From Nymphaea colorata (lineage: Eukaryota; Streptophyta; Magnoliopsida; Nymphaeales; Nymphaeaceae), in the NCBI RefSeq assembly GCF_008831285.2, contig NC_045140.1, positions 27,670,131 to 27,734,130 of the forward strand: 64,000 nt of DNA, read 5' to 3'. Below the pieces are notes generated by a model. It searched no databases and was not told the DNA's origin. It saw only the letters and a program-made list of their open reading frames with translations. Made by a program: the position numbers and the translations under genes. Shown piece after piece: positions 574 to 61,080 of the stretch (its first letter is position 1; the number at the start of each line of letters is the position of its first letter).

Positions 574-1068
574 CTAGTAAGGACGCTGGCCTTGAACGTT
601 ACCAGGAGGATAGTAGTTGCAGGTAATGAAGGTGCCACCATTGTCACACTCGACCCTGGCGCAGCCCAGCCGCACCGACTTGCGCCACACCATCTGAGTG
701 TAGTGCCCGCACATCTGCTCACTAGCACATGTGTTGGTGTCGTAGTCGTAGTTGGTCTTTTCATTCACCCAATCGCTCACGGCATCTGCGGCGGTCCACC
801 CAGAACCGCTGCCCTGGAAGATGTTCTCCCCATACCGGCCACCTGAGTGCTCCAGGTTGCAGTCACCAACCCTCTGGTTCGCATAGCCCTCGGCGTAGGC
901 TGCGACCTCGTCGTCCCAAGACATTGGGCCGACGCCAACTTCAGCACGAGCTGCGTTGTGAGGAGCAAGGAAGTCTTGGGGAGAGTTTTGGGCGTGGGTG
1001 CCATGGATGAGCATTCCAAGGCCCAGCACTAGGCAGACCCAAACAAGGGCACCAGTGGAGCGCTTCAT
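574..1068 (-). CDS. PR1: PR-1 type CAP-domain secreted protein (PR-1 gene 1)
   Basis: Intact single-exon gene for a 164-residue pathogenesis-related protein 1, an apoplastic defence protein of the CAP/SCP family. I chose the Met of MKRSTGALV because all paralogs start there; an in-frame Met seven codons upstream exists but is not conserved. Residues 1-26 form a signal peptide ending GTHA. The mature part has the six PR-1 cysteines (70, 114, 120, 136, 141, 150). The likely CAP cavity residues are H74, E81 in YGEN, E103 and H122 in GHYTQ, assigned by analogy with GAPR-1. The C-terminus has CNYYPPGN and ends with the 11-residue CAPE-like peptide [11 protein letters not shown]. Length is normal for PR-1. 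It lies alone on the minus strand inside the left arm of the large inverted repeat. Its TATA box is altered (see 1175). Family assignment is secure; activity is inferred. Confidence 0.96.
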
Positions 1069-1174
1069 TTGGCTAATCACAGGAAGCAAAGCAAAGAAAC
1101 AGAGAGAAGCCGTATTCCTTAAAGTGGAGCTAACTCTTGGCCCTTCTGATAGAAATACGGGGAGAGGTTGGCCA

Positions 1175-1181
1175 ATTTATG
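1175..1181 (-). promoter_or_regulatory. Degenerate TATA box of PR-1 gene 1
   Basis: All other PR-1 copies in the window, including the dead ones, have CTCTATAAAT about 115-170 bases before the ATG. At the same aligned position gene 1 reads CTCCATAAAT, so the TATA core has become CATA. The flanking block (GGTGCTCnATAAATT, then CCAACCTCTCC) is otherwise conserved. This may weaken or shift transcription of an intact gene. Confidence 0.55.
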
Positions 1182-9540: not shown

Positions 9541-10073
9541 TAGGTTCTTTCCTCCCATTAGCTAGATAAAATTTTTTAGTAACCATCGCATATCTGCTTT
9601 CTAGCTACGAATGCCATGAAAAGGGTTCTGCTGCATTTGGATGTAGCAATTGATCAGTAGTTTCTGCTCTCCGCTTACATAGTTGTAAAAGCTGATCAGA
9701 CCAAATATTTCCACACAAAAATGGCTCCCCATTAGTTGGTCGCGGTTCTTCTTATTTGATGCCTTTGTGGAGTGTGATATTGTACTTGATTCTCAAGTAT
9801 CAGAGCCTCCTGTTGCTTCTCTGAGTTGATGTCACCCAACCATTTTGATTAGGAAAATATTGACGGTGATTTTTAGCATGTGGAGCTCCTTTGCTTCTGG
9901 TCCTTTCGCATGGGCATTAATTAATTTCTTGTGAAACTTCACGATAACTTTCAATATTGGATGGCCTACTTTTCAAAGATGACCACCAAGCTAACCAGCG
10001 AGCCCGTTCAAATGCCATACTTTTCAAAGATGACGATGAAGGTAACCAGCAAGCCCTTACGTTCATGGTGCTC

Positions 10074-10080
10074 TATAAAT
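10074..10080 (+). promoter_or_regulatory. TATA box of PR-1 gene 2
   Basis: TATAAAT in the conserved context CATGGTGCTCTATAAAT, about 130 bases before the ATG. Upstream, at about 9965-10060, an approximately 55-base promoter segment (TACTTTTCAAAGATGAC...) is repeated twice in tandem; the other PR-1 promoters have it once. Confidence 0.75.
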
Positions 10081-10208
10081 TCGACGACCTCTCCCCGTTA
10101 GTGTACCACAAGCCCAAGAGCCAGCTCCACTCAAGGAATAACCTGCTTCCTAGACCTGTTCTTTTCAGACATCTACATCACTTTCCTTCCTTTTTTGTGA
10201 TCATCCCG

Positions 10209-10712
10209 ATGGAGTGTTCCCCTCATGCCCGTGTTTGGGTCTCCCTACTGCTAGGCCTTGCCATGCTCATCCATGGCACTCAGGCTCAAAACTCACCCCA
10301 AGACTACGTTGCTGCTCACAACGCTGCTCGTGCCCAAGTTGGCGTCGGTCCAATCTCTTGGGACGATACCGTTGCAGCTTATGCCGAGAACTATGCGAAC
10401 CAGAGGATCGGTGACTGCAGCATGATCCACTCTGGTGGTAATGGTGGCCAGTATGGGGAGAACATCTTCGGAGGCGGTGGTTCTGGGTGGACTGCCGTAG
10501 ATGCCGTGAACTCGTGGGTGGATGAGAAGAGCAACTACGACTACAACACCAACACCTGTGCTAGTGAACAGATGTGCGGGCACTACACTCAGGTGGTGTG
10601 GCAAAACTCGGTGCGGCTGGGCTGCGCCAGGGTCGAATGCAACAACGGTGGCACCTTCATTACCTGCAACTACGACCCAGCTGGTAACGTTGATGGGGAG
10701 CGTCCCTATTAG
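10209..10712 (+). CDS. PR1: PR-1 type CAP-domain secreted protein (PR-1 gene 2)
   Basis: Intact single-exon PR-1 of 167 residues. The frame stays open for 84 codons upstream, through the TATA box. I start at [10 protein letters not shown] because it aligns with all paralogs and begins the signal peptide (1-26, ending GTQA). All six PR-1 cysteines are present. The probable cavity residues are H74, E84, E106 and H125. The C-terminus is CNYDPAGN with the CAPE-like end [11 protein letters not shown]. It differs from the other copies by a three-residue glycine-rich insertion ([12 protein letters not shown]), apparently a small GGTGGT-type slippage duplication just before the conserved YGEN. Promoter and 3' flank are most like those of the frameshifted copy at 42.2 kb, so the two are sister duplicates. 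Family call secure. Confidence 0.96.
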
Positions 10713-34234: not shown

Positions 34235-34308
34235 TGGCCAACCTCTCCCCGTATTTCCATCAGAAGGGCAAGAGTTAGCTCCACGTTAAGGGACGTGTTT
34301 TCTTAAGG

Positions 34309-34310
<2 letters not shown>

Positions 34311-34371
<61 letters not shown>
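34311..34371. repeat. (TC)30 microsatellite in PR-1 leader
   Basis: An uninterrupted TC run ending 25 bases before the PR-1 ATG. In PR-1 gene 1, the inverted-repeat partner, the same place has only CTTCTCTCTG, so the run expanded after duplication. Confidence 0.95.
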
Positions 34372-34373
<2 letters not shown>

Positions 34374-34395
34374 TTTGCTTCCTGTGATTAGCCAA

Positions 34396-34859
34396 ATGGA
34401 GCGCTCCCCTGCTGCCCTTGTTTCGGGCTGCCTACTGCTGAGCCTTGGAATGCTCAACCATGGTACTCACGCCCAAAACTCTCCTCAAGACTTCCTTATT
34501 CCTCACAACGCAGCTCGTGCTGAAGTTGGCGTCGACCCAATCTCTTGGGACGACGCCGTCGCAGCCTACGCCCAGGGCTATGCGAACCAGAGGATTGGTG
34601 ACTGCAACTTGGAGCACTCCGGTGGCCGGTATGGGGAGAACATCTTCTAGGGCAGCGGTCTTCAGTTTAATGCCGCAGATGCCGTGGACTCTTGGGTGTC
34701 TGAAAAGAGTGACTACAACTACAGCACCAACACCTATGCCAGTGGAAAGGTGTGCGGGCTGGGCTGGGCTGCGCCAAGGTTGAGTGTAACAATGGTGGCA
34801 CCTTCATTACCTGCAACTACGACCCAGCTAGTAACGTTGATGGGGAGAGTCCCTATTAG
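34396..34859 (+). pseudogene. PR1: PR-1 pseudogene 3
   Basis: Starts like an intact PR-1 ([10 protein letters not shown], signal peptide to GTHA, then QNSPQDF) and reads normally to YGENIF. There a CAG to TAG change at 34648-34650 stops it after 84 residues. Beyond, the frame resumes ([20 protein letters not shown]), but the first CTC-type cysteine is Tyr (NTYASGK). About 35 bases covering the GHYTQVVW motif are deleted out of frame. The C-terminal PR-1 codons are still visible in another frame to the aligned TAG at 34857. It is the inverted-repeat partner of gene 1, but its 3' flank matches genes 2 and 5. Not functional as PR-1. Confidence 0.92.
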
Positions 34860-37486: not shown

Positions 37487-37586
37487 TTGAAAACCTTTCT
37501 CCATTATGCTATCACAAGCCCAAAGTACTTGGTTCCTAGATCAGACCACTCTCTCTTTTCTTTTGTTTTCTTCTTGTGATCAGTCA

Positions 37587-38078
37587 ATGAAGCGTTCCCC
37601 TGGCCTTCTTGTTTGGATCTGCCTGCTGGGCCTTGGAATGCTGTTCCGTGGCACTCACGCCCAAAACTCTCCGCAAGACTTCCTTGCTGCTCACAACAAG
37701 GCTCGCGCCCAAGTAGGTGTCGGCCATATGGTATGGGACGCTAACGTTGCGGCCTATGCCCAGAAGTATGCCAAGCAGAGGATCGGTGACTGCAGGCTGG
37801 TACACTCCCATGGGCCGTATGGGGAGAACCTCTTCCTGAGCAGTGTGCACCAGAACACTGCAAAAGATGCTGTGAACTGGTGGGTAGCCGAAAAGAGGTA
37901 CTACAACCACGCCACCAACACCTGTGCCTGTGGACAGGTATGCGCCCACTACACACAGGTGGTGTGGCGCAAGTCGGTGCGGCTGGGCTGCGCCAGGGTC
38001 AAATGCCACAACGGTGCCATCTTCATTACCTGCAACTACTATCCACCTGGTAACGTTAAAGGCGAGCGTCCTTACTAG
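37587..38078 (+). CDS. PR1: PR-1 type CAP-domain secreted protein (PR-1 gene 4), basic, with an extra cysteine
   Basis: Intact single-exon PR-1 of 163 residues. I start at MKRSPGLLVW, aligned with the paralogs, although 27 further codons upstream are open. The signal peptide is 1-25 (ending GTHA). The six PR-1 cysteines and the cavity residues H73, E80, E102 and H121 are present, and the C-terminus is CNYYPPGN with CAPE-like end PPGNVKGERPY. Unlike its neighbours, the loop before the central motif reads CACGQVCAHYTQ, so Cys115 is a seventh, apparently unpaired cysteine in the mature protein. The protein is rich in Lys, Arg and His compared with the acidic genes 1 and 2 and is likely a basic PR-1. 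Its directly duplicated partner at 60.0 kb is dead. Confidence 0.96.
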   Translation: MKRSPGLLVWICLLGLGMLFRGTHAQNSPQDFLAAHNKARAQVGVGHMVWDANVAAYAQKYAKQRIGDCRLVHSHGPYGENLFLSSVHQNTAKDAVNWWVAEKRYYNHATNTCACGQVCAHYTQVVWRKSVRLGCARVKCHNGAIFITCNYYPPGNVKGERPY

Positions 38079-42109: not shown

Positions 42110-42242
42110 TTGGCAACCTCTCCCCATTTTTCTGTCACAAGCCCAAGAGATAGCTCCGCTTTGTTAAGGAAGTACCTGCTTTCCTACCTAGAGTTGTTCT
42201 TTGAAAACCTCTACGTTTCCTTTCTTTCGTGTGATCATCCCC

Positions 42243-42733
42243 ATGGAGCGTTCCCCTGCCCTTGCTTGGGTCTCCCTATTGCTGGGCCTTGGAATGCTCA
42301 TCCATGGCACTCACACTCAAGACTCACCCCAAGACTCAGTTGATGCTCACAACACCGCTCGTGCCGAGGTTGGCGTCGGTCCAATCTCTTGGGACGACAC
42401 CGTTGCAGCCTACGCCCAGAACTATGCCAACCAAAGGATCGGCGACTGCAACCTGGTGCACTCCGGCGGCCAGTATGGGGAGAACATCTTCTGGGGCAGT
42501 GGGCGTGACTACACCGCAGTTACGCCGTGAACTCTTGGGTGTCTGAAAACAGTGATTACGACTACAGCACCAACACCTGTGCCAGTGGGAAGGTGTGCGG
42601 GCACCACATTCAGGTGGTCTGGCGCAACTCGGTGCGGCTGGGCTGCGCCAAGGTCACGTGTAACAGTGGTGACATATTCATCACCTGCAACTACCACCCT
42701 GCTGGTAACGTTGTAGAGGAGAGTCCCTATTAG
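42243..42733 (+). pseudogene. PR1: PR-1 copy 5, single frameshift
   Basis: Reads as a normal PR-1 from [10 protein letters not shown] through the signal peptide (ending GTHT) to [15 protein letters not shown]. There one base is missing at about 42,519-42,521 and the frame ends at TGA. In the next frame the protein continues without interruption ([17 protein letters not shown]) to the normal end at 42731-42733. All six PR-1 cysteines are encoded. The central motif is changed to GHHIQVVW instead of GHYTQVVW, and the C-terminal peptide is [11 protein letters not shown]. Promoter, TATA box and 3' flank are intact and closest to gene 2. It is either a very young pseudogene or an intact gene with a base-call error. 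Confidence 0.9.
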
Positions 42734-42799
42734 ATATATAGGACATGCCTACATTTGGCTTGTCCTTCTGGCTTTGTAATAAACCGAGCGTAGGCTCGC

Positions 42800-45700
42800 T
42801 CATCTATATAGAATAACTTGTGAGGGTGGACGTTGGGTAGCTAGCCCCGTTGATATATCCTACGAACTTTATCCACCGTCCTCCGTTGCTTACTTATCCC
42901 GTCAAATAGTATCTACATGTACTTTGTGATAAAAATTGCATCCTTTTCTGTCGCTGTTTGAGAGAGACAAAAAGAGAGAGTCTAATCATGATTTCGGTCG
43001 TCGTCTATTCATGCTGAATGAACGAGCTTGATCCTCATCAACTTCCATTTATAACTGGGCGGCGATGCTCCAACGAAGGAGCTTGATTCATTTTAACTTT
43101 AAAAGTGAAGACAGGCACCATCTTTCATCCTAAAAGGACAAATGATATACGGGAAAACGGCTAGGGTTACTATTTGCAGCACTTCATGAGTGATCAGCTT
43201 AATTCATACCGAGGCACTCGCTTTGCTTTGTCATAAGCAAACGCTACAGCACCAATCAGGTGTACTTTTGGATGTGAACCTTGTTACCATATTTTGATTG
43301 AATATTATGCATCAAATAATGTTAATTGCCTGTTGACAAGAATGACATAGCGTCGCTAGGCGCACCGGAAGTTGCAGCACTTCTGGTCAAGGGTCAGGTG
43401 ATGGATAAAGAGCGCAGTATAGCAGTGGAAATAACCGTCGTCTGACTAGCAGGATAAGGGGCAGCACCTGTGACAAAGAAAATAGAGAGAAGAAAGAGGA
43501 GAAAGCGAAAAAGAACTGTATGAGGGTTTACTTCTGAGAGGCGCACAGTTGATTTCTCAACGATAATGTATTAAGATAAAGACGCTGGGTTTTATAGACC
43601 GCCTCTCAAGATTTCTCCAATTACCCAGCTACGGTTATGGCAAGGAGATTTAAGGTAAGAATCAAAACGGTAACATAATATCATGATTTATTTCTTGTTT
43701 TAATTCTATAATTGCAGGATCTTCTTTGCAGTTACAAAATGAAAGGATAGGGCTCAGGGCCACTACCCAACATGGGGTTCATGGCTGCCTAGCTTGTCCA
43801 TGGTCATATTTGAATACGCCAGGTTTCTGGTGCAGTCGGTACTACCAGCTTGTCCAAATGAGTCATACTGATGTGATCACATAAGCCCATACCATGATGT
43901 GATCACATAAGCCCATACCAAAATTTAAGGTCTATCAAACTTTAAACTTCAATCCAGATCTTGTTCAGTACCGCTTCCCGATTTCCCACTAACAACACAT
44001 GAATTGAAGATGAGGTTGCTTTTGAACTTGTCCGTAAGGTTCTTACATTTGAAGAATTTCAAATTATAACAAATCATGATGCAGTTCGAATACATCGACC
44101 AATTTGCATATAAGTAATTAAGGTGGCGACTGCTTCTGTTTTTATAAATAGTTATGACAAGTATTTGCCGATGGCTTTTGAGATATCTTAACCGTACTTT
44201 CACACAATTTTTCGTTTCTTCTCATGCTTACTTCAGGATCAATTTTGTAAAAATAGATCAAAACACGTCGCTTGCCTGTTGCCTAAATGATACAGCGTAT
44301 CAACCTGTATTGGCCAATATTTTTAACGTGATTCTATCTTATTTTTATTTGCAGATTTGTTTATTAAGTAAATTAAAAAAACTTTAAAATTTCTGGGTCG
44401 TTATACCCGTGATGGGCCGAAGCTGCTTTTGGGTCCACCAGCGAGCCGCGTCGTAGATCACGTAAGAAGGTCTGTTTGTTGATTTAATACTTGGTAGATA
44501 CAATCTGATCTGTCCCTCATCGTAGGGCTGCGCACGAGCAGAGTTGAGCTCGAGCTCAGTCAGCTTCAGCTTGGCTCGATTCATGTTTAGTCAGCTCGAG
44601 CTTGACACGAGCTTTACATTTTCAACTCAAGTTCGACTCAGGCGGCTCGTTTATTTTTTATTCATGCATGCTTTTCCACACTGACTATGCTATGGTGGTG
44701 TGTTCGGTAATGACACCTGCCATGAGAAGTGCTTAAAGGCAGGAGAAAAAGTGTGGGCGAGAAAAAAAAAGGAAGGAAAAATAACGATCAACTTGGTGAG
44801 AAAAGAGAAATTGGTGAGAAAAGAGAAAAATGAAAGGGAAAATGAAAATGTTGATTGATTGGAAAGCTTAAGATGAAATTGAGAATTGGGAGTGACTCCG
44901 TTTGTCTCCCTTTTGCAATTCCAATGAAAATCTTGTCGGGAGTGACTCCCATTTTATTGTCCCTTTTGCAATTGAACGATTGCAAAAGCACTTCACCGAA
45001 CTTGTTGAGAAGATGGGTTTAATTTTGTTCTTCAAACCCAAAATCAAAGTCAACGGTCAAATATCATAAGAAGACGTCACTCTTGCAGTCAGTCGTGCAC
45101 CAGCAGAGCCTAGGATGTTAAAGCTTGACTCGTTTGGAATGACTGGATCATTCATGTCTTAATGAGCTCGGTCGAGTTGAACTTATTTTTGGAAGCTCGA
45201 ACCAAGTTTAAGCCAATTGAGTTTTGAAACATCAAACTTCGTTGAATGAGGTAGAATAGCAACTCAAACTCATAGGTTAAAAAGTTTCAATTTTAAGTTA
45301 ATGGGGAAAACAAAACAACTCACCCATCGTGAGGAAAGCATATCAAAACATATGCATTTTTTTTTCCGTATGTCTAAAGTTTTGTTTTTCCAAAAAAAAA
45401 AAAGAAAAAGAAAAGCCAAGTGGGGAATGAATATGAAATATTGTTTTAGTTGTGCTCTTGTGGGGAGCCTCTTTGGTAGTGGTGGTGGAGAAGGAGGTGA
45501 CCGGTTGCCCGTGGCCGGTGGGTGGTTTGGGTCTTTTTTTTTTATATATATGCCAAAGGGAGAGTGTTGTGTAATTGTAGCTTTAGAATTGTCTAGATCT
45601 GTAAAATGATTTTAATTATTAGAGGAATTGTCATCTGCGTTTATTTTTTTCCAATGAATTGCATCTTTGACATGTGCAGCGGTGAAGGAGTCGTCTCTCC

Positions 45701-46252
45701 TCTTTTTTTTTTTTGTACGTCAGGTTCTTTTGGAGAGGCACTTCTTGTTTTCTTTGGACATAAACTATGGAAGTTCTTGCTTTTGGGATCCGTAGGGTCT
45801 CTTGCAAAAGATGATTATAAATAGTGCTGCGCTCATTAGCATTCCATACCCTTTTCGTACAAAATGTGGACATGAATCTCAGTCATCAAAACAATAAAAT
45901 CTATCTACCTAAAATGGCATTGCGACGCATAAATAAGTTTTTTAAGAGTCAACAACATCCTTTTAAGTATATAAAAGTCACTTTTGTGTTGATTTTCATA
46001 CTATAAAACATAAAGATTAATAAAGTTTGAGTTGAAATAATAAGTGGTTGTTATGTATATATATGTTTTGTTAATTTTTTTTTTGTCTTTCATTATGATA
46101 CAGACCAAGACCCATTTGTACAGGATCTGTATTTTTACTGAATTAGTTTTTTGTTCAAGTTACCAAACAAGAACACCATTCATCTAAATCCAAACAATTC
46201 TACTGATAGTAAATGTGAGATTGGAAGAACAAATTATGACTGTGTGCATACA

Positions 46253-46290
<38 letters not shown>

Positions 46291-46311
46291 AGCACTTAAT
46301 TTAATATATTA
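42800..46311. other. PR-1 copy 5 downstream flank and anonymous DNA
   Basis: To about 44,250 this is PR-1 3' flank shared with gene 2 (10.8-11.7 kb) and with the empty duplicon (8.4-9.5 kb). A 26-base segment beginning TGATGTGATCACATAAGCCC is tandemly doubled at about 43,869-43,920. From 44,400 to 46,300 no gene is supported. 44,520-44,650 is a GAGCTCGAGCT-rich patch typical of plant repeats. Confidence 0.5.
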
Positions 46312-46413
46312 ATGTACTCATTTTATTGCATGATGATACATAGTATCATAAGTAGGATTCGGTTAATGAGCAGCAACATGGTTGAAAGTGGGAAGCAGCG
46401 ACTGGTGGTTTGC

Positions 46414-46674
46414 TTAGGCAGTTTGGATGGGTTCGGCAATGAGAGAGTAGACACGGTCCATGGACTCATGCTTCAAGACACCAACGCTATCTTCATAATC
46501 GTACATGCACTGGGAGACCCTCGCAATGTTGAGCGCCACGTCCATGAAGGATCGAGAGAAGGCAGTATGTTGCTGATGTTGCTGAGCCGAGTGCATCTCC
46601 CTGTTCAGCCTCCTCCATGCATCCTTTAGCAAGTGCCATATGTGCTGCCATGTTTGTTCCTCCGCTACCATTGT
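46414..46674 (-). pseudogene. Terpene synthase terminal exon, isolated
   Basis: On the minus strand, after an AG at 46675-46676, an open exon of 86 codons reads TWQHIWHLLKDAWRRLN, then SRSFMDVALNIARVSQCMYD, and ends with a MDRVYSLIAEPI segment and TAA. This matches the C-terminus of plant class I terpene synthases (LARVSQCMYxxxD...RVxSLxxEPI), which is encoded by a separate last exon. A minus-strand AATAAA at 46322-46327 lies where a poly(A) signal is expected. No other terpene synthase exon, and no DDxxD or NSE/DTE metal site, is seen in the 2 kb upstream, which is filled by repeats. It is most likely a fragment copied with its 3' UTR, though a gene with a very long intron cannot be excluded. 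Confidence 0.82.
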
Positions 46675-46682
46675 CTGGTTAT

Positions 46683-47520
46683 GTTAACGATAAGGTTGAA
46701 AGACAATCGTTTTAGAGATATTTAAGGAAAAAATCCTCGCAAGATCAATCAAAACTAATCATAAAGAAAAAAGAAATTTTTTCTGCAAAAATCAGATTTA
46801 GTTTCTCATATGTATCATTGCCAAGATTTTAGCGTTAAATGATAAGGTTGAAAGACAACCGTTCTAGAGAAATTGAAGGAAATAATCTTAGCAAGATCTA
46901 TCAAAGTTAATGATAAAGAAAAAAAAAACTTTCCACAAAAATTAGATTTAGTTTCTCAAGTTTATCATTGCCAAGATTATAGGACCTTCAACTATTTAAG
47001 TTCGTTTCATGCATTGTGTAACCAAGGCTCATGGTGGCCTTTCAGGGTAAAAAACCATATACGTTTAATGAAAAGAATTTTTTCATGCTGGTTTTTATTT
47101 GTTTTACTTATTTTTTATTTTTTATCTTGGTATCAGAGCAGGATGCTTGATGAAAAAGAATGAAGCCCATAGGTGGTCTGCATGCAACCAAATTCATTGT
47201 TATCTTCTTCACCAAAATCTTGAGAAATCAAACTTGGGTTTTCTGAATTGCTGCCAAAGCACGATCTACCTTCACAAAAAACTTCATAAAGCAAATTTGG
47301 GCTCGTCAAATCATTGCCAAAGAGATGGCATGATCACCTTAGAGGATGTTAACGATAAGTTTGAAAGTCAATCATTCAAGAGAGATTCAAGGAAAGAATC
47401 CCAGCAAAATCAATCAAAATTAATGATAAATGAAAAATAAAATCTTTCCACAAAAATCAAATTTAGTTTTCTATGTTTATCGTTATCATGATTGTAGGAA
47501 CTTCAACTATTTAAGCTTGT
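46683..47520 (+). repeat. Three copies of a 160-base repeat around an LTR-element primer site
   Basis: Units start at about 46,683, 46,833 and 47,348. Each begins with a variant of GTTAACGATAAGGTTGAAAG and ends near CATTGCCAAGATT. Units 1 and 2 are adjacent; unit 3 lies about 350 bases later. Between units 2 and 3 is a primer-binding-site match (47128-47139). The units may be pieces of an LTR, which would make this a collapsed retrotransposon. Confidence 0.6.
47128..47139 (+). mobile_element. LTR retrotransposon primer-binding site
   Basis: TGGTATCAGAGC is the plant initiator-tRNA-Met primer-binding site used by copia and many other LTR elements. No recognisable gag follows. It marks a relic element next to the terpene synthase exon. 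Confidence 0.65.
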
Positions 47521-48448
47521 TCTATGCGTAATTATTTAAGTTTGTTAAGTATCAATTATGATTTGGTGTTTATGATTCATTTAGGATATTTTTGTGGGGG
47601 CGGTACCTTGCTCAAGAATTATGATATTCTGAGAATGTAGCGTTATTTTTTTATTTCACCTCTCTCTCGAGGCGTATGCAAACAATCGGTTGTCTTATTT
47701 CTGAAAAGAACAAAAGAAAAAACAAACTATGTATCTATTACTGCAAATGAAACTAATTGTTCGCTCTTCATGAGTAACTAATCTTCAAAATCTAGAATTA
47801 AAGATTATCAATATTTTTTAATTAATGATAAAGCGAATTGCATATATCTATATATATATTCACATCAAGAGAAAAATGGTGCTTCTGCTCTGGTCAGACC
47901 CGTGGTACCAAGAATGATAGAAATTTAAGGAGGTTGAGTCCAATTCAAACATGGGACCTGGAGCTATTAGGAAAATGACTTCTTTTTTTGATGCATACAT
48001 TTAACTAATCTTTGTAATCTGACAACAGTCCTTCTAGAACGAACGCCTGGGACAGAGTTGCTAACAATGACTTTGTTTTCCAGAACATGATTCCTCACAT
48101 CATTTCCATTTTACATCTCAAGCGTTGTTTCTCAAACTAACTTTCGTTTAGGAAACCAATTCTAACTAGCCAACTCATGAACCATTTTTCCCATGAACAT
48201 GATTCCTCTTGCAGCCTTTCAGTTTGCAGGTAGAGCTGATGAATAAATAGCAAGCTCATGGCTAACCGACAATTTATTTTTGTAAGGGGAGCCGTGCAAT
48301 TAGCAGCTCATTATGCATAAATGGGTAATTAGCACAAACACCGAGTGTCAAGTCGGCTTGTTTTGCCCTGCCAATGCTTAGCTAACGTGTAATATGAAGG
48401 TTACAGACTTATATCTAAGCTTGATAATGTTTTGCTGGTTATTCAATC
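47521..48448. other. Stretch without recognised genes
   Basis: AT-rich DNA with no supported gene on either strand. Confidence 0.4.
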
Positions 48449-49223
48449 TAATGATCTTTCAAATCCTTAGATTTAGATATTGTTGCTAGTGGATGTTTCA
48501 TACTTGCTGTTTGTTGTTTATTTTGGATGTTATATATTCATTCTGATTTGATTTTTGTTAATTGGTTTGTGTCTTTTGCAAATTTGCCGCAGGTTTTTTT
48601 TAGTGCATGTACATGTTTTTGTATTTCCTTTTATCATTAGGAGTCGCTGAAGAAAAAAATGTTGGCGTAACTTCATTTGTTTTGGTCTATTTATGTACAA
48701 ACAAAAAACCATCAACCATAAGTCAAGGCCAAAATGCGCTTTGCTTTATTGCTTTTGCCTATTTTTATACCAAAAAAAACCATCACACATTCAAACTTAG
48801 CAAACACCAGACAACCTCATTAAAGTCCTCTGGTTATGTGTTAACCAGAGGACTTTAATGAGGTTGTCTGGTGTTTGCTAAGTTTGAATGTCTGATGGTT
48901 TTTTTTGGTATAAAAATAGGCAAAAGCAATAAAGCAAAGCGCATTTTGGCCTTCGGCTTATGGTTTTTTGTTTGTACATAAATAGACCAAAACAAATGAA
49001 GTTACGCCAACATTTTTTTCTTCAGCGACTCCTAATGATAAAAGGAAATACAAAAACATGTACATGCACTAAAAAAAACCTGCGGCAAATTTGCAAAAGA
49101 CACAAGCCAATTAACAAAAATCAAATCAGAATGAATATATAACATCCAAAATAAACAACAAACAGCAAGTATGAAACATCCACTAGCAACAATATCTAAA
49201 TCTAAGGATTTGAAAGATCATTA
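48449..49223. repeat. Near-perfect 775-bp palindrome with a five-base loop
   Basis: The left arm (48,449 to 48,836) is the reverse complement of the right arm (48,842 to 49,223), with about a dozen differences by eye, including one six-base deletion in the right arm. The loop is TGTGT. The two arms encode almost the same 60- and 61-residue frames on opposite strands, which are mirror images and not genes. No flanking target-site duplication is evident. If transcribed across the centre it would fold into a hairpin stem of about 385 bp. Confidence 0.93.
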
Positions 49224-49753
49224 GAGAAAAAGAACAATCATAACAAAAGGAACCCATACAACCAAAAGAATTTTTATTACTGGCAAGAATCAGTCATCAC
49301 TTTTTCTTAAACAGCAAGCATAGGTTTAATACCAACCGGCATTGTCATTGACAATGCATTAACCCCAACCAGCATTCTTCAATGTTACAAGGACAAAATC
49401 AACTTAAATCGCTTTTATTATCACCTTCCACGGAGCAAATGAAAAGAAAACAAAAAGAAAAAACTTCCTCTCGGCAATTATAAAGTCTTTGTAGGAACTG
49501 CACTCGGTCCAATTGCCCATTCGGCTACCTTCCTCAGTTCAATTTCCTAATTACGGACTTGTATTGCACCAAACACATCCAGGGAACAAGTGAAAGCGGA
49601 AGGACGCAGTTCGGAAGGCAAAATCGCAGACCAAATCCAACATTAATATTTGTTCAACAAAATTGAGAAACATACTGAAGCCCCAAAAATGGAAACGAGA
49701 CATAATGGCGCCCATTTTCAATAAATAAAGGATGAAGAGAAACGGCAACCAAC

Positions 49754-50266
49754 CAGATGATTAACAATATGAGACCCGGACGTGTTGCCCCTTGAATTGC
49801 AGAACCACTTGCGGCAGGACGGGACGACGCAAGCAGGGTTCTGCACCCCGCAATACCGGGACGCATGCTCAGTGAAATCCCCTCCACATGTCCAACCTCA
49901 AAGCCCTCCTCATCGCCAGTTGCCTCGAAGCTCAGCTCACCGATACCCGCAGCCAAGGCATCTGTCACGCCCTGGTTCGACCGGCCTTTCGTCCCGGTAG
50001 GCCTGGGAGACGACGCGGCCGTGTTGGCAGACGCCGTATCCGCAGGCAGATCGCGGTTGTTCGACTCGTTGGCCGCCGCGGCACCGGTGGTAGGGAGGCG
50101 AGTTGTTGGGAGACCACACGGTCGACCTGATCGGCTGGCTGAGCTTCCTGAATTCGTAGTCGTAGTCGTCGCCTTGCGTGTTGAATTCTAGGAAGGTGTA
50201 AGGGTCGCCTGTGTCGGGCTGGGACGCTGTCTCGTAGAGGTTGGGGACGACATGCCGCGCGGCCAT
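49754..50266 (-). pseudogene. UPF1: UPF1 (RNA helicase of nonsense-mediated decay) first-exon pseudogene
   Basis: The minus strand starts MAARHVVPNLYETASQPDTG and continues YTFLEFNTQGDDYDYEF and LSQPIRS, the N-terminus of plant UPF1. A frameshift near 50,098 moves the sequence to a second frame (ALAAGIGELSFEATGDEEGF). A second shift near 49,872 leads to [19 protein letters not shown], then [20 protein letters not shown] and NHL, the start of the UPF1 CH zinc domain. About 12 bases (RCN region) are deleted there, removing a zinc-binding cysteine. After NHL the sequence passes into non-coding DNA at a GT, and no helicase domains follow. Upstream there is leader-like DNA with AACCCTAG and AGGGTTT motifs. 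This is a genomic copy of exon 1 plus leader, dead. Confidence 0.88.
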
Positions 50267-51229
50267 GGTGGGGGGAAACTGGAAAGGAAGGAAACCCTAG
50301 CCCCCTCGTGCTTCCCCCCTCCCGTGGAGAAAGACGATTGATTTCCGTTGAAGGGGTTCGCGCGCTGGGTTAGAGCCAGAGTTAGGGTTTCTTCTCCCTT
50401 TCGAGAGGACGAAGGAGGAAGAGGGAGAGGGGAAAGAGAGAAGAATTAGAGAGGACGAAGGAGGAAGAGGGAGAGGGAAAGAGAGAGGGAGAGGGAAAGA
50501 AAGAAGAAAAAAGCGGACAAAAAATCGATGAAGGGGAATGCGATCGCGTCCCTCAAATAGTAACGATGAGTTAAGAGAAGTAACTGCGGTTAAACCCAAA
50601 GTAACCGAGTCTTTGGTGACGCGTGGGCGTAGGGAAAGATCAAGCTCAGGGATTTCGTGCGAAAGACGTCGGACTCAATCGGGTTGACATCTCTGACAAC
50701 CGACCCGCACGGGAACATTGGTTGGAGCTGCAAACGGATCGAATATGGCTTTACGATTTGATTCGAATGCTACCCGTTATTACTGCTTTTGAACTTTAGA
50801 CCAGACCCATTTGGACCCGATACAAACAAAATTAATTCGTAGAGTGGATTTTAATACTACAAGACGGGCAATGGCTGTGGTGATTCGAACACAAGCAAAA
50901 AGGATGAGGCCTGATTAACTCACTCATTAAGTGAGACAGGCAGGAGGACCCGTTTTACAATAGGATTCTATTGCAGATTTAGGTCCAATATTTGGTTTAA
51001 TTAAGATGTTCCTTCTTCTAGCCTTTCGTTGCCCTCCTTTTGATTTGCAAGTTGGGATGAAAAGAAGCCCGAGCCTTTCTTTCTTTCTTTTGCTCTTTTA
51101 AGATCTAAACCAGTGAATAAAATTATTGCTCTTTGAGGTCCACTTTTTTTATAAATTGACCATCCAGGTGCAGGTCCAGAAAAGAAGATCCAATCGTCAT
51201 GGGCCGAAAATAGAAATTCGAGCAAAAGA
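50267..51229. other. UPF1-like leader and anonymous DNA
   Basis: About 50,270-50,560 is GA-rich leader-like DNA belonging to the UPF1 copy on the minus strand. No other gene is seen. Confidence 0.45.
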
Positions 51230-60029: not shown

Positions 60030-60479
60030 ATGGAGCATTCCCCTGGCGTCCTTGTTTGGTTTAGCTTACTGCTGGGCCTTGGAATGCTAATCCATGGCGC
60101 TCACGCCCAAGACTTCGTTGCTGCTCACAAAGTGGCTCGCGCCCAAGTAGGTGTTGGTCCTATGGTATGAGATCTTACCGTTGCGACCTATGCCAACCAG
60201 AGGGTCGGTGACTGCAGGCTGAAATGCTTGGGCGGGCCGTATGGGGAGAACCTCTACGCTACGTGAGTACACTATAGAAGATGCCGTGAACTTGTGGGTA
60301 GCCGAAAAGAGGCACTACAACTACACCACCAACACCTGTGCGACAGCCACTACACACAGGTGGTGTGCCGCAAGTCGTTGCGGCTGGGCTGCGCCAAGGT
60401 CAAATGCAACAACGGTGCCATCTTCATCACCTGCAACTACGACCCTCCTGGTAACTTTGTGGGGCAGCGTCCCTACTAG
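60030..60479 (+). pseudogene. PR1: PR-1 pseudogene 6
   Basis: Starts MEHSPGVLVW with a normal signal peptide (ending GAHA). It lacks four codons (NSPQ) at the mature N-terminus and stops where the conserved Trp codon is TGA (after VGVGPMV). Further on it has lost about four codons of the helix before QRVGDC and has a second stop after YGENLYAT. A deletion removes part of the loop with the third and fourth PR-1 cysteines. The C-terminal part ([18 protein letters not shown] and CNYDPPGN to the CAPE-like [11 protein letters not shown]) is still open from 60,294 to the TAG. Direct duplicate of gene 4. Not functional as a full PR-1. Confidence 0.9.
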
Positions 60480-60566
60480 GTATATAGTGCGTGCCAAATT
60501 AACATTTGGCTTGGCCTTTAATTTATTTTGCGTTGTAATAATCAGAGCAGCAGCTCGTCTACGTCG

Positions 60567-60572
60567 AATAAA
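60567..60572 (+). terminator. Polyadenylation signal of PR-1 pseudogene 6
   Basis: AATAAA 88 bases past the aligned stop, same context as after gene 4. Confidence 0.5.
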
Positions 60573-61080
60573 ATGTAAGACTGGATGCATACGGATACAG
60601 TTGTGTAAATAAATAAATGTATTTGATATATTAGAGGCCATGAATCTACCCTCCCCGATGTTCAATGCAGATGCATGAAATTCCCAAAAAAAGACGAATA
60701 GAAAAGGATGCCATGAAACTTTTTTGTCGCAAGAGGGTTAGCAGCGGCGACCGATTGTGCCACTATTGTGTATGTTACGCCGGCATGCTGCTGTTGCTTC
60801 AGTGATCAAAAAGAGAAAGGTGGAAGGCGGATAGGAGGGTAACATGTCATGATTGTTCATGTAGGATGAACAAAAAAATATCATATTAATTTGCCTTCGT
60901 ATTCTCATTGCGAAAATCTACTAGATATAGGACTCAACTCGTCCGTATGAATCTCAACATTCCTGTTGGTTTTAACAGGAGTAATAAGGTCAAAAGCCTT
61001 TAAGGTCCCAAGATATGATTGTTGTCAAACCTAAATGGCAAAAAAGAGAACCTTGATTTTAAAAATTGGAAGTTTTTGAT

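What the first reader, a model, noticed from the sequence alone, without database searches (positions are those of the whole stretch)
48449..49223. Near-perfect 775-bp palindrome with five-base loop
Arms of about 385 bases differ by only about a dozen positions and a six-base gap, and the spacer is TGTGT. So young and tight a palindrome is very unstable in replication and rare in assembled genomes. It may be a foldback element, a recent fold-back repair event, a hairpin RNA gene, or a sequencing artefact from a missed hairpin adapter. The arm differences argue for a real structure, since an artefact would normally copy the same molecule with only read errors.
Basis: partly seen in the sequence, partly recalled or inferred. 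Interest (0 to 1): 0.7.

Follow-up and report, generated by a model that had tools for sequence, protein, structure and literature searches.

The report
Fold-back palindrome beside a UPF1 pseudogene
A 779-base near-perfect DNA palindrome in what looks like a plant chromosome is a real but probably functionless scar of DNA repair, in which part of a copied UPF1 gene intron was folded back and copied again; it is of interest mainly because a second, altered copy in the same genome lets its formation and later change be read step by step.

Summary
The palindrome is real: arms 48447-48836 and 48842-49225, loop TGTGT, 379 of 390 aligned columns identical. It is not an artefact of one locus: the same 408-Mb genome holds a second copy about 434 kb away (C3:27283438-27284199) in an inverted segmental duplication; outside the palindrome the two blocks differ by 1.6% substitutions. 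The right flank and outer right arm are collinear with a UPF1 gene region on contig C4, inferred to be an intron; the left arm is an inverted second copy. Its outer end joins a multi-copy sequence through 7 nt of microhomology. The block is a mosaic of three UPF1 pieces, a piece of that repeat family and about 171 nt of unknown source. This fits fold-back priming with further template switches during repair. The second copy lacks 27 nt of the centre, as in deletions known to stabilise palindromes. One substitution and one 1-nt indel distinguish both arms of one copy from both arms of the other, hinting at arm-to-arm copying. No target-site duplication was seen and Rfam gave nothing. A hairpin-RNA role is untested and unlikely. 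A well-preserved example of a known process.

The parts
48447..48836 (+). Left arm: inverted second copy of the right arm
   Evidence: its outer flank belongs to another sequence family, not to UPF1
48837..48841 (.). Five-base loop TGTGT at the centre
48842..49225 (-). Right arm: the original copy; its outer 219 nt (49007-49225) are UPF1-like and run on into UPF1 sequence on the right
   Evidence: window 49072-49425 matches C4:21429783-21429406 and 49007-49048 matches C4:21430198-21430158
48666..48836 (+). Inner 171 nt of the left arm (Y; mirror 48842-49006 in the right arm): no UPF1 similarity; found only in the two palindromes; holds an internal imperfect repeat (38 columns, 82%)
   Evidence: searched as 48664-48836
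48446..48452 (+). Seven-base microhomology ATCTAAT at the junction between family X and the inverted UPF1 segment
49226..49424 (-). UPF1 flank (piece C), collinear with C4; 17 nt next to the arm are missing here but present in the second copy and C4
49425..51109 (-). UPF1 5' region (piece B): upstream sequence, exon 1 and start of the next intron (exon limits inferred); UPF1_Zn_bind match at 49736-49867 in a 59-aa open frame against 310 aa at C4, hence taken as a pseudogene
45449..48446 (+). Piece of a multi-copy sequence family (X), cut off at the palindrome
44904..45403 (-). UPF1 upstream piece A (C4:21422087-21422584), now on the far side of the palindrome from piece B
42789..51226 (.). Block shared, in inverted orientation, with C3:27281452-27289840, which holds the second palindrome
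   Evidence: 95.9% identity over 8522 columns

Best explanation
It is an inverted duplication made by fold-back (hairpin-primed) DNA synthesis during repair of a broken or stalled end in a relocated, truncated copy of the UPF1 gene. Shown: the right flank and outer right arm are UPF1 sequence in the original order; the left arm is an inverted copy; its outer end changes to another sequence family at a 7-nt microhomology; a second palindrome shares the left junction and, but for a 17-nt deletion just outside the window's right arm, the right border, and differs at the centre. Inferred: a 3' end near the present centre folded back with a 5-nt loop, was extended about 385 nt along its own strand, switched template at ATCTAAT into a copy of family X, and later into another part of the UPF1 locus (piece A). 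A segmental duplication then copied the finished palindrome. One copy later lost 27 nt of its centre, and the arms exchanged at least one sequence difference. No function is proposed; it is most likely a repair scar.
For: Two palindromes at paralogous loci. Collinearity of right flank and outer right arm with C4, and the identity of C4 as UPF1 from two Pfam PF09416 matches and a helicase exon matching UPF1 structures at E 1.9e-17. Left flank matches two C9 loci of family X up to 48452, after which they continue differently. 7-nt microhomology, reached by chance in 0.076% of 400,000 simulated junctions. Further pieces of the same UPF1 locus joined out of order in the same block. Published yeast fold-back inversions start from single-stranded hairpins, with loops under 15 nt in one class and stems as short as 4 bp, and then undergo secondary rearrangements (PMC7467729, passages; PMC10622511, passages).
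Against: The source of the inner 171 nt was not found, so the sequence in which the fold happened is not known. The X donor is represented only by two C9 relatives; in one of them the seven bases hold a mismatch that leaves about 4 nt of microhomology. [quoted passage not shown] The junction between UPF1 pieces B and C shows only 2-4 matching bases by eye. No unrearranged version of this locus was seen. The data do not separate hairpin priming from fusion of sister chromatid ends.
Confidence: 0.75

Rival explanations
1. Sister-chromatid fusion: two replicated broken ends joined head to head, and the dicentric product broke again about 385 bp away and was joined to X.
For: Would give the same palindrome with a few bases of asymmetry at the centre.
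Against: Needs a second break only about 385 bp from the centre; the chain of out-of-order pieces and the microhomology fit template switching more simply.
Confidence: 0.15
2. Foldback or MITE-like transposable element with long terminal inverted repeats.
For: Long, nearly identical inverted repeats; a multi-copy sequence next door; by the border letters alone a TA duplication hidden inside the symmetric ends (TCTA...TAGA) cannot be excluded.
Against: Only two copies, both explained by the segmental duplication; no other direct duplication seen at the borders; on the right the arm is continuous with UPF1 sequence also on C4, so no insertion took place there.
Confidence: 0.03
3. Sequencing or assembly artefact such as a missed hairpin adapter.
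For: The palindrome form is typical; a published assembly that fits this genome in size used PacBio RSII reads.
Against: Two loci, 1.6% apart, with the same left junction and different centres; the symmetry stops at 48447 and 49225; two adapter fragments recalled from memory have no exact match in the window or in the 20 kb around the second copy. Whether the two blocks could be two haplotypes placed twice was not tested, but each would still hold the palindrome.
Confidence: 0.02
4. A young hairpin RNA (proto-MIRNA or siRNA) locus driven by the duplicated UPF1 upstream sequence.
For: Piece B with exon 1 lies so that transcription on the minus strand would run into the palindrome; the predicted RNA fold is near-perfect; 26 21-mer positions of the fetched C4 UPF1 region are shared with the palindrome.
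Against: No expression or small-RNA data; no Rfam match in the window; the shared 21-mers lie in what is inferred to be an intron, so absent from mature mRNA.
Confidence: 0.05

Closest known systems
Fold-back inversions (inverted duplications) of yeast, short-loop class (PMC7467729, PMC10622511; passages seen)
   Same: Near-perfect palindrome with a 5-nt loop and a second junction leading elsewhere
   Different: Here the inverted segment is short (about 385 nt), interstitial, inherited and duplicated; the second junction uses 7 nt of microhomology; the yeast short-loop class was typical of repair mutants
Centre deletions that stabilise palindromes in mice and cultured cells (described in PMC8701086, passages seen)
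   Same: A 27-nt difference removes the centre of symmetry in the second copy
   Different: Seen as a difference between two paralogues, direction inferred; the second copy still has a loop of only 6 nt (AAGTCC)
Arm-to-arm gene conversion in mammalian sex-chromosome palindromes (PMC6790999, start of abstract in a search listing only)
   Same: Both arms of one copy share changes absent from the other copy
   Different: Arms of 0.4 kb, and evidence from one substitution and one 1-nt indel only
Inverted-duplication model of plant MIRNA genes (PMC3237417, title and start of abstract in a search listing only)
   Same: Inverted duplication of part of a gene gives a hairpin
   Different: The duplicated part is intron plus unknown sequence; no small-RNA evidence

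Membership tests
Fold-back inverted duplication | Near-perfect inverted copies with a short central spacer | tested here: met
Fold-back inverted duplication | One arm collinear with the ancestral sequence, the other not | tested here: met
   shown for the outer 219 nt of the arm and its flank
Fold-back inverted duplication | Short inverted repeat at the centre of the ancestral sequence | tested here: inconclusive
   the inner stretch, searched as 48664-48836, was found only in the two palindromes
Fold-back inverted duplication | Second junction to another sequence | tested here: met
   7-nt microhomology to family X
Foldback or MITE transposable element | Target-site duplication at the borders | tested here: not met
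   flanks TTCAA and GAAAA are not direct repeats (read); a hidden TA cannot be excluded from the letters, but the right arm is continuous with UPF1 sequence in the second copy and C4
Foldback or MITE transposable element | Several copies at independent sites | tested here: not met
   7 matching stretches in the genome: two palindromes in one segmental duplication, partial single-arm matches on C4 and C13; the search skips very common words
MIRNA or hairpin siRNA gene | Transcription and 21-24-nt small RNAs from the arms | not testable with these tools
   no RNA data held
MIRNA or hairpin siRNA gene | Match to a known RNA family | tested here: not met
   no Rfam match at gathering score in the window; a young locus would not be expected to match

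The most novel reading that the evidence does not exclude
Repair built a natural hairpin-RNA cassette: the duplicated UPF1 upstream sequence and exon 1 transcribe straight into a near-perfect inverted repeat of UPF1 intron sequence, giving siRNAs that could methylate the UPF1 gene on C4 and so tune nonsense-mediated decay.
Probability: 0.06. Interest if true: 0.7.

Novelty: new member of a known kind. Interest (0 to 1): 0.35.

Why it matters
A long tight palindrome with a readable history is useful. Here a source gene, both borders, a second copy with a shorter centre and a few arm-shared changes are all in one genome, so formation, duplication, centre trimming and possible arm-to-arm copying can be put in order. 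That makes it a good worked case for fold-back repair in plants, not a new mechanism.

Tried and rejected
Transposable element: no target-site duplication seen and only two copies. Artefact: set aside because of the second copy. Rfam and tRNA scans of the window: nothing. Pfam on ten translated stretches of the window: 1 of 10 had a hit, a CAP (PR-1) domain at 37491-38078; the three UPF1-like stretches among them had none, and the 45-aa one of these also had no PDB hit at E up to 1. That stretch was later seen to be in another frame than the match found by the genome-wide family search. Source of the inner stretch (searched as 48664-48836): found only in the two palindromes by the genome search and by a lenient search of the loci fetched by then and the window. 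Circular intermediate: considered because piece A lies on the far side of the palindrome from piece B; serial template switching explains it as well, so it is not claimed. An 8-base match CTGGTTAT between the left flank and the centre was seen by eye and set aside as possibly chance. Identity of family X: open frames were listed in two copies but not searched; not identified.

Full report
Observation. The palindrome is present. Arms are 48447-48836 and 48842-49225 with the loop TGTGT between them. Of 390 aligned columns 379 are identical; the 11 others are 5 substitutions and one 6-nt gap, 9 of the 11 in one cluster. It is far beyond chance: 0 of 20 shuffles fold as well, and of 10 inverted-repeat pairs listed in the window (at least 50 nt, at most 3 kb apart) the 2 above 90% complementarity are both parts of it.

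Host. The window is C3:27670131-27734130 of a 407.8-Mb genome in 783 contigs. It looks like plant sequence with an array of PR-1-like (CAP) genes: one was confirmed by Pfam, the others are judged by eye and by similarity within the window. The size fits the water lily Nymphaea colorata, 409 Mb, 14 pseudo-chromosomes, sequenced with PacBio RSII (PMC7015852, passages). This identification is inference.

A second copy. Searching window 48449-48835 in the genome gave 7 matching stretches: both arms here, both arms of a second palindrome (P) on C3, two stretches at C4:21429634-21430198 and a weak one on C13. P spans C3:27283438-27284199, is 762 nt long and 98.95% self-complementary. It lies about 434 kb away in a block that matches window 42789-51226 in inverted orientation at 95.9% identity. 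Aligned positions differ in 122 of 7541 outside the palindrome and 9 of 752 inside it. A sequencing artefact at one place cannot give this.

Source. Window 49072-49425, which is right flank plus outer right arm, matches C4:21429783-21429406; the arm's match goes on at C4:21430158-21430198. Between these C4 has 374 bp where the arm has 23; C13 matches the arm across that point without the extra sequence, so it is probably a later insertion in C4. C4 here is UPF1: two UPF1_Zn_bind matches at 21424110-21424253 and 21426088-21426354, and a helicase exon at L009:5331-5465 that matches solved structures of Regulator of nonsense transcripts 1 at E 1.9e-17. From the reading frames the matched C4 stretch is inferred to lie in an intron before that exon; there is no gene model, and whether the C4 gene is intact throughout was not tested. 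So the right arm is the original and the left arm the inverted copy. UPF1 similarity ends at window 48665, arm position 219; C4 and C13 continue alike there and the arm does not (read). The inner stretch, searched as 48664-48836, occurs only in the two palindromes.

Mosaic. Read on the minus strand the block runs: UPF1 5' region (51109-49418 = C4:21422884-21424580); a jump of 4.8 kb to the next UPF1 piece (49425-49072 and on); the inner 171 nt; the fold; the inverted copies; a piece of multi-copy family X (48446-45449); then UPF1 upstream piece A (45403-44904 = C4:21422087-21422584). Piece A matched nothing else than the window, P and C4 among 44 rows (40 of 343 candidates scored). Family X gave 49 matching stretches, two of them the window and P, most over 46004-47528 (40 of 262 candidates scored); only two places, both on C9, matched the last 220-260 nt before the palindrome. 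The UPF1 5' piece is taken as a pseudogene: its domain match sits in an open frame of 59 aa in the window and 155 aa in P, against 310 aa at C4. It differs from C4 at 117 of 1618 positions, 7.2%.

Left junction. The two C9 loci match the left flank up to 48452 and then continue differently. Compared with the UPF1 side, seen without the 17-nt deletion in P's right flank, the overlap with one C9 copy is ATCTAAT, 7 nt; the other C9 copy has a mismatch there that leaves about 4 nt. Random junctions between such sequences give 7 or more in 0.076% and 5 or more in 0.79% of 400,000 trials. The junction between the first two UPF1 pieces shows only 2-4 matching bases by eye.

After formation. Apart from the trimmed centre, no differing column groups the left arms of W (the window's copy) and P against the right arms, so the arms were identical, or nearly so, when the block was duplicated. 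Two differences between W and P are shared by both arms of each copy: a G/C substitution (W 48621 and mirror 49051) and one T more in P in a T run (W 48672-48673 and mirror). They suggest copying between arms; the T run could have slipped twice independently, so the case rests on one substitution. Changes private to one arm also exist: one substitution in P's right arm; in W two substitutions in the left arm, and one substitution and, as read by eye, two indels in the right arm. P's centre equals W's with 27 nt removed; that it was a loss in P rather than a gain in W is inferred. Centre deletions are reported to stabilise palindromes (PMC8701086, passages).

Mechanism. Fold-back priming with later template switches is the best account. 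In yeast, fold-back inversions form from hairpins with stems as short as 4 bp, in one class with loops under 15 nt, and then undergo secondary rearrangement, mostly by homology, at times by microhomology (PMC7467729, passages; see also PMC10622511, passages). Against a simple transfer of that model, the short-loop class was typical of mre11, sae2 or yku80 mutants, while strains with working MRE11 and SAE2 had a median loop of 36 nt. Sister-chromatid fusion cannot be excluded. The steps from break to fold are inferred.

Function. None is shown. The duplicated UPF1 upstream sequence points toward the palindrome, and 26 21-mer and 18 24-mer positions of the fetched C4 region are shared with the palindrome, so siRNA production is possible, but no RNA data were available.

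Literature. Eight searches were made. Those on plant palindromes and gene conversion (49, 68) and plant template switching (67) listed 15 of 16, 10 of 107 and 4 of 4 papers; none of the listed titles reports this locus. They cover open-licence papers only, and I did not search for the locus by name, so no claim is made that it is absent from print.

Noticed in passing
window 574-1176, 9948-10712, 34279-34650, 37491-38078, 42192-42530, 60223-60612: PR-1-like (CAP) genes and fragments on both strands, judged by eye; the palindrome block sits among them. Only 37491-38078 was tested against Pfam.
   Followed up: partly
window 45449-48446; L030, L031, L032, L034, L035: Multi-copy family X with units of about 150 bp (46681-46832, 46833-46984, 47346-47497). 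Four of the five fetched loci hold another inverted repeat of at least 117 nt nearby; whether that is more than chance was not tested.
   Followed up: partly
window 43461-43773: Dispersed repeat of about 310 bp: 37 of 44 rows of the genome search fall on it, on many contigs (capped list).
   Followed up: no
window 43777-44446: Pieces similar to C3:27229571-27230371, about 53 kb from the second palindrome.
   Followed up: no
C4:21429784-21430157 (L009): 374 bp inside the C4 UPF1 region where the C3 copies have 23 nt; absent from the C13 match, so probably a later insertion.
   Followed up: partly
C13:7524800-7524960 (L010): Short stretch similar to the same UPF1 region and continuing like C4; perhaps a remnant of another UPF1 copy.
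   Followed up: no
window 43869-43920: Perfect two-copy 26-bp tandem repeat.
   Followed up: no
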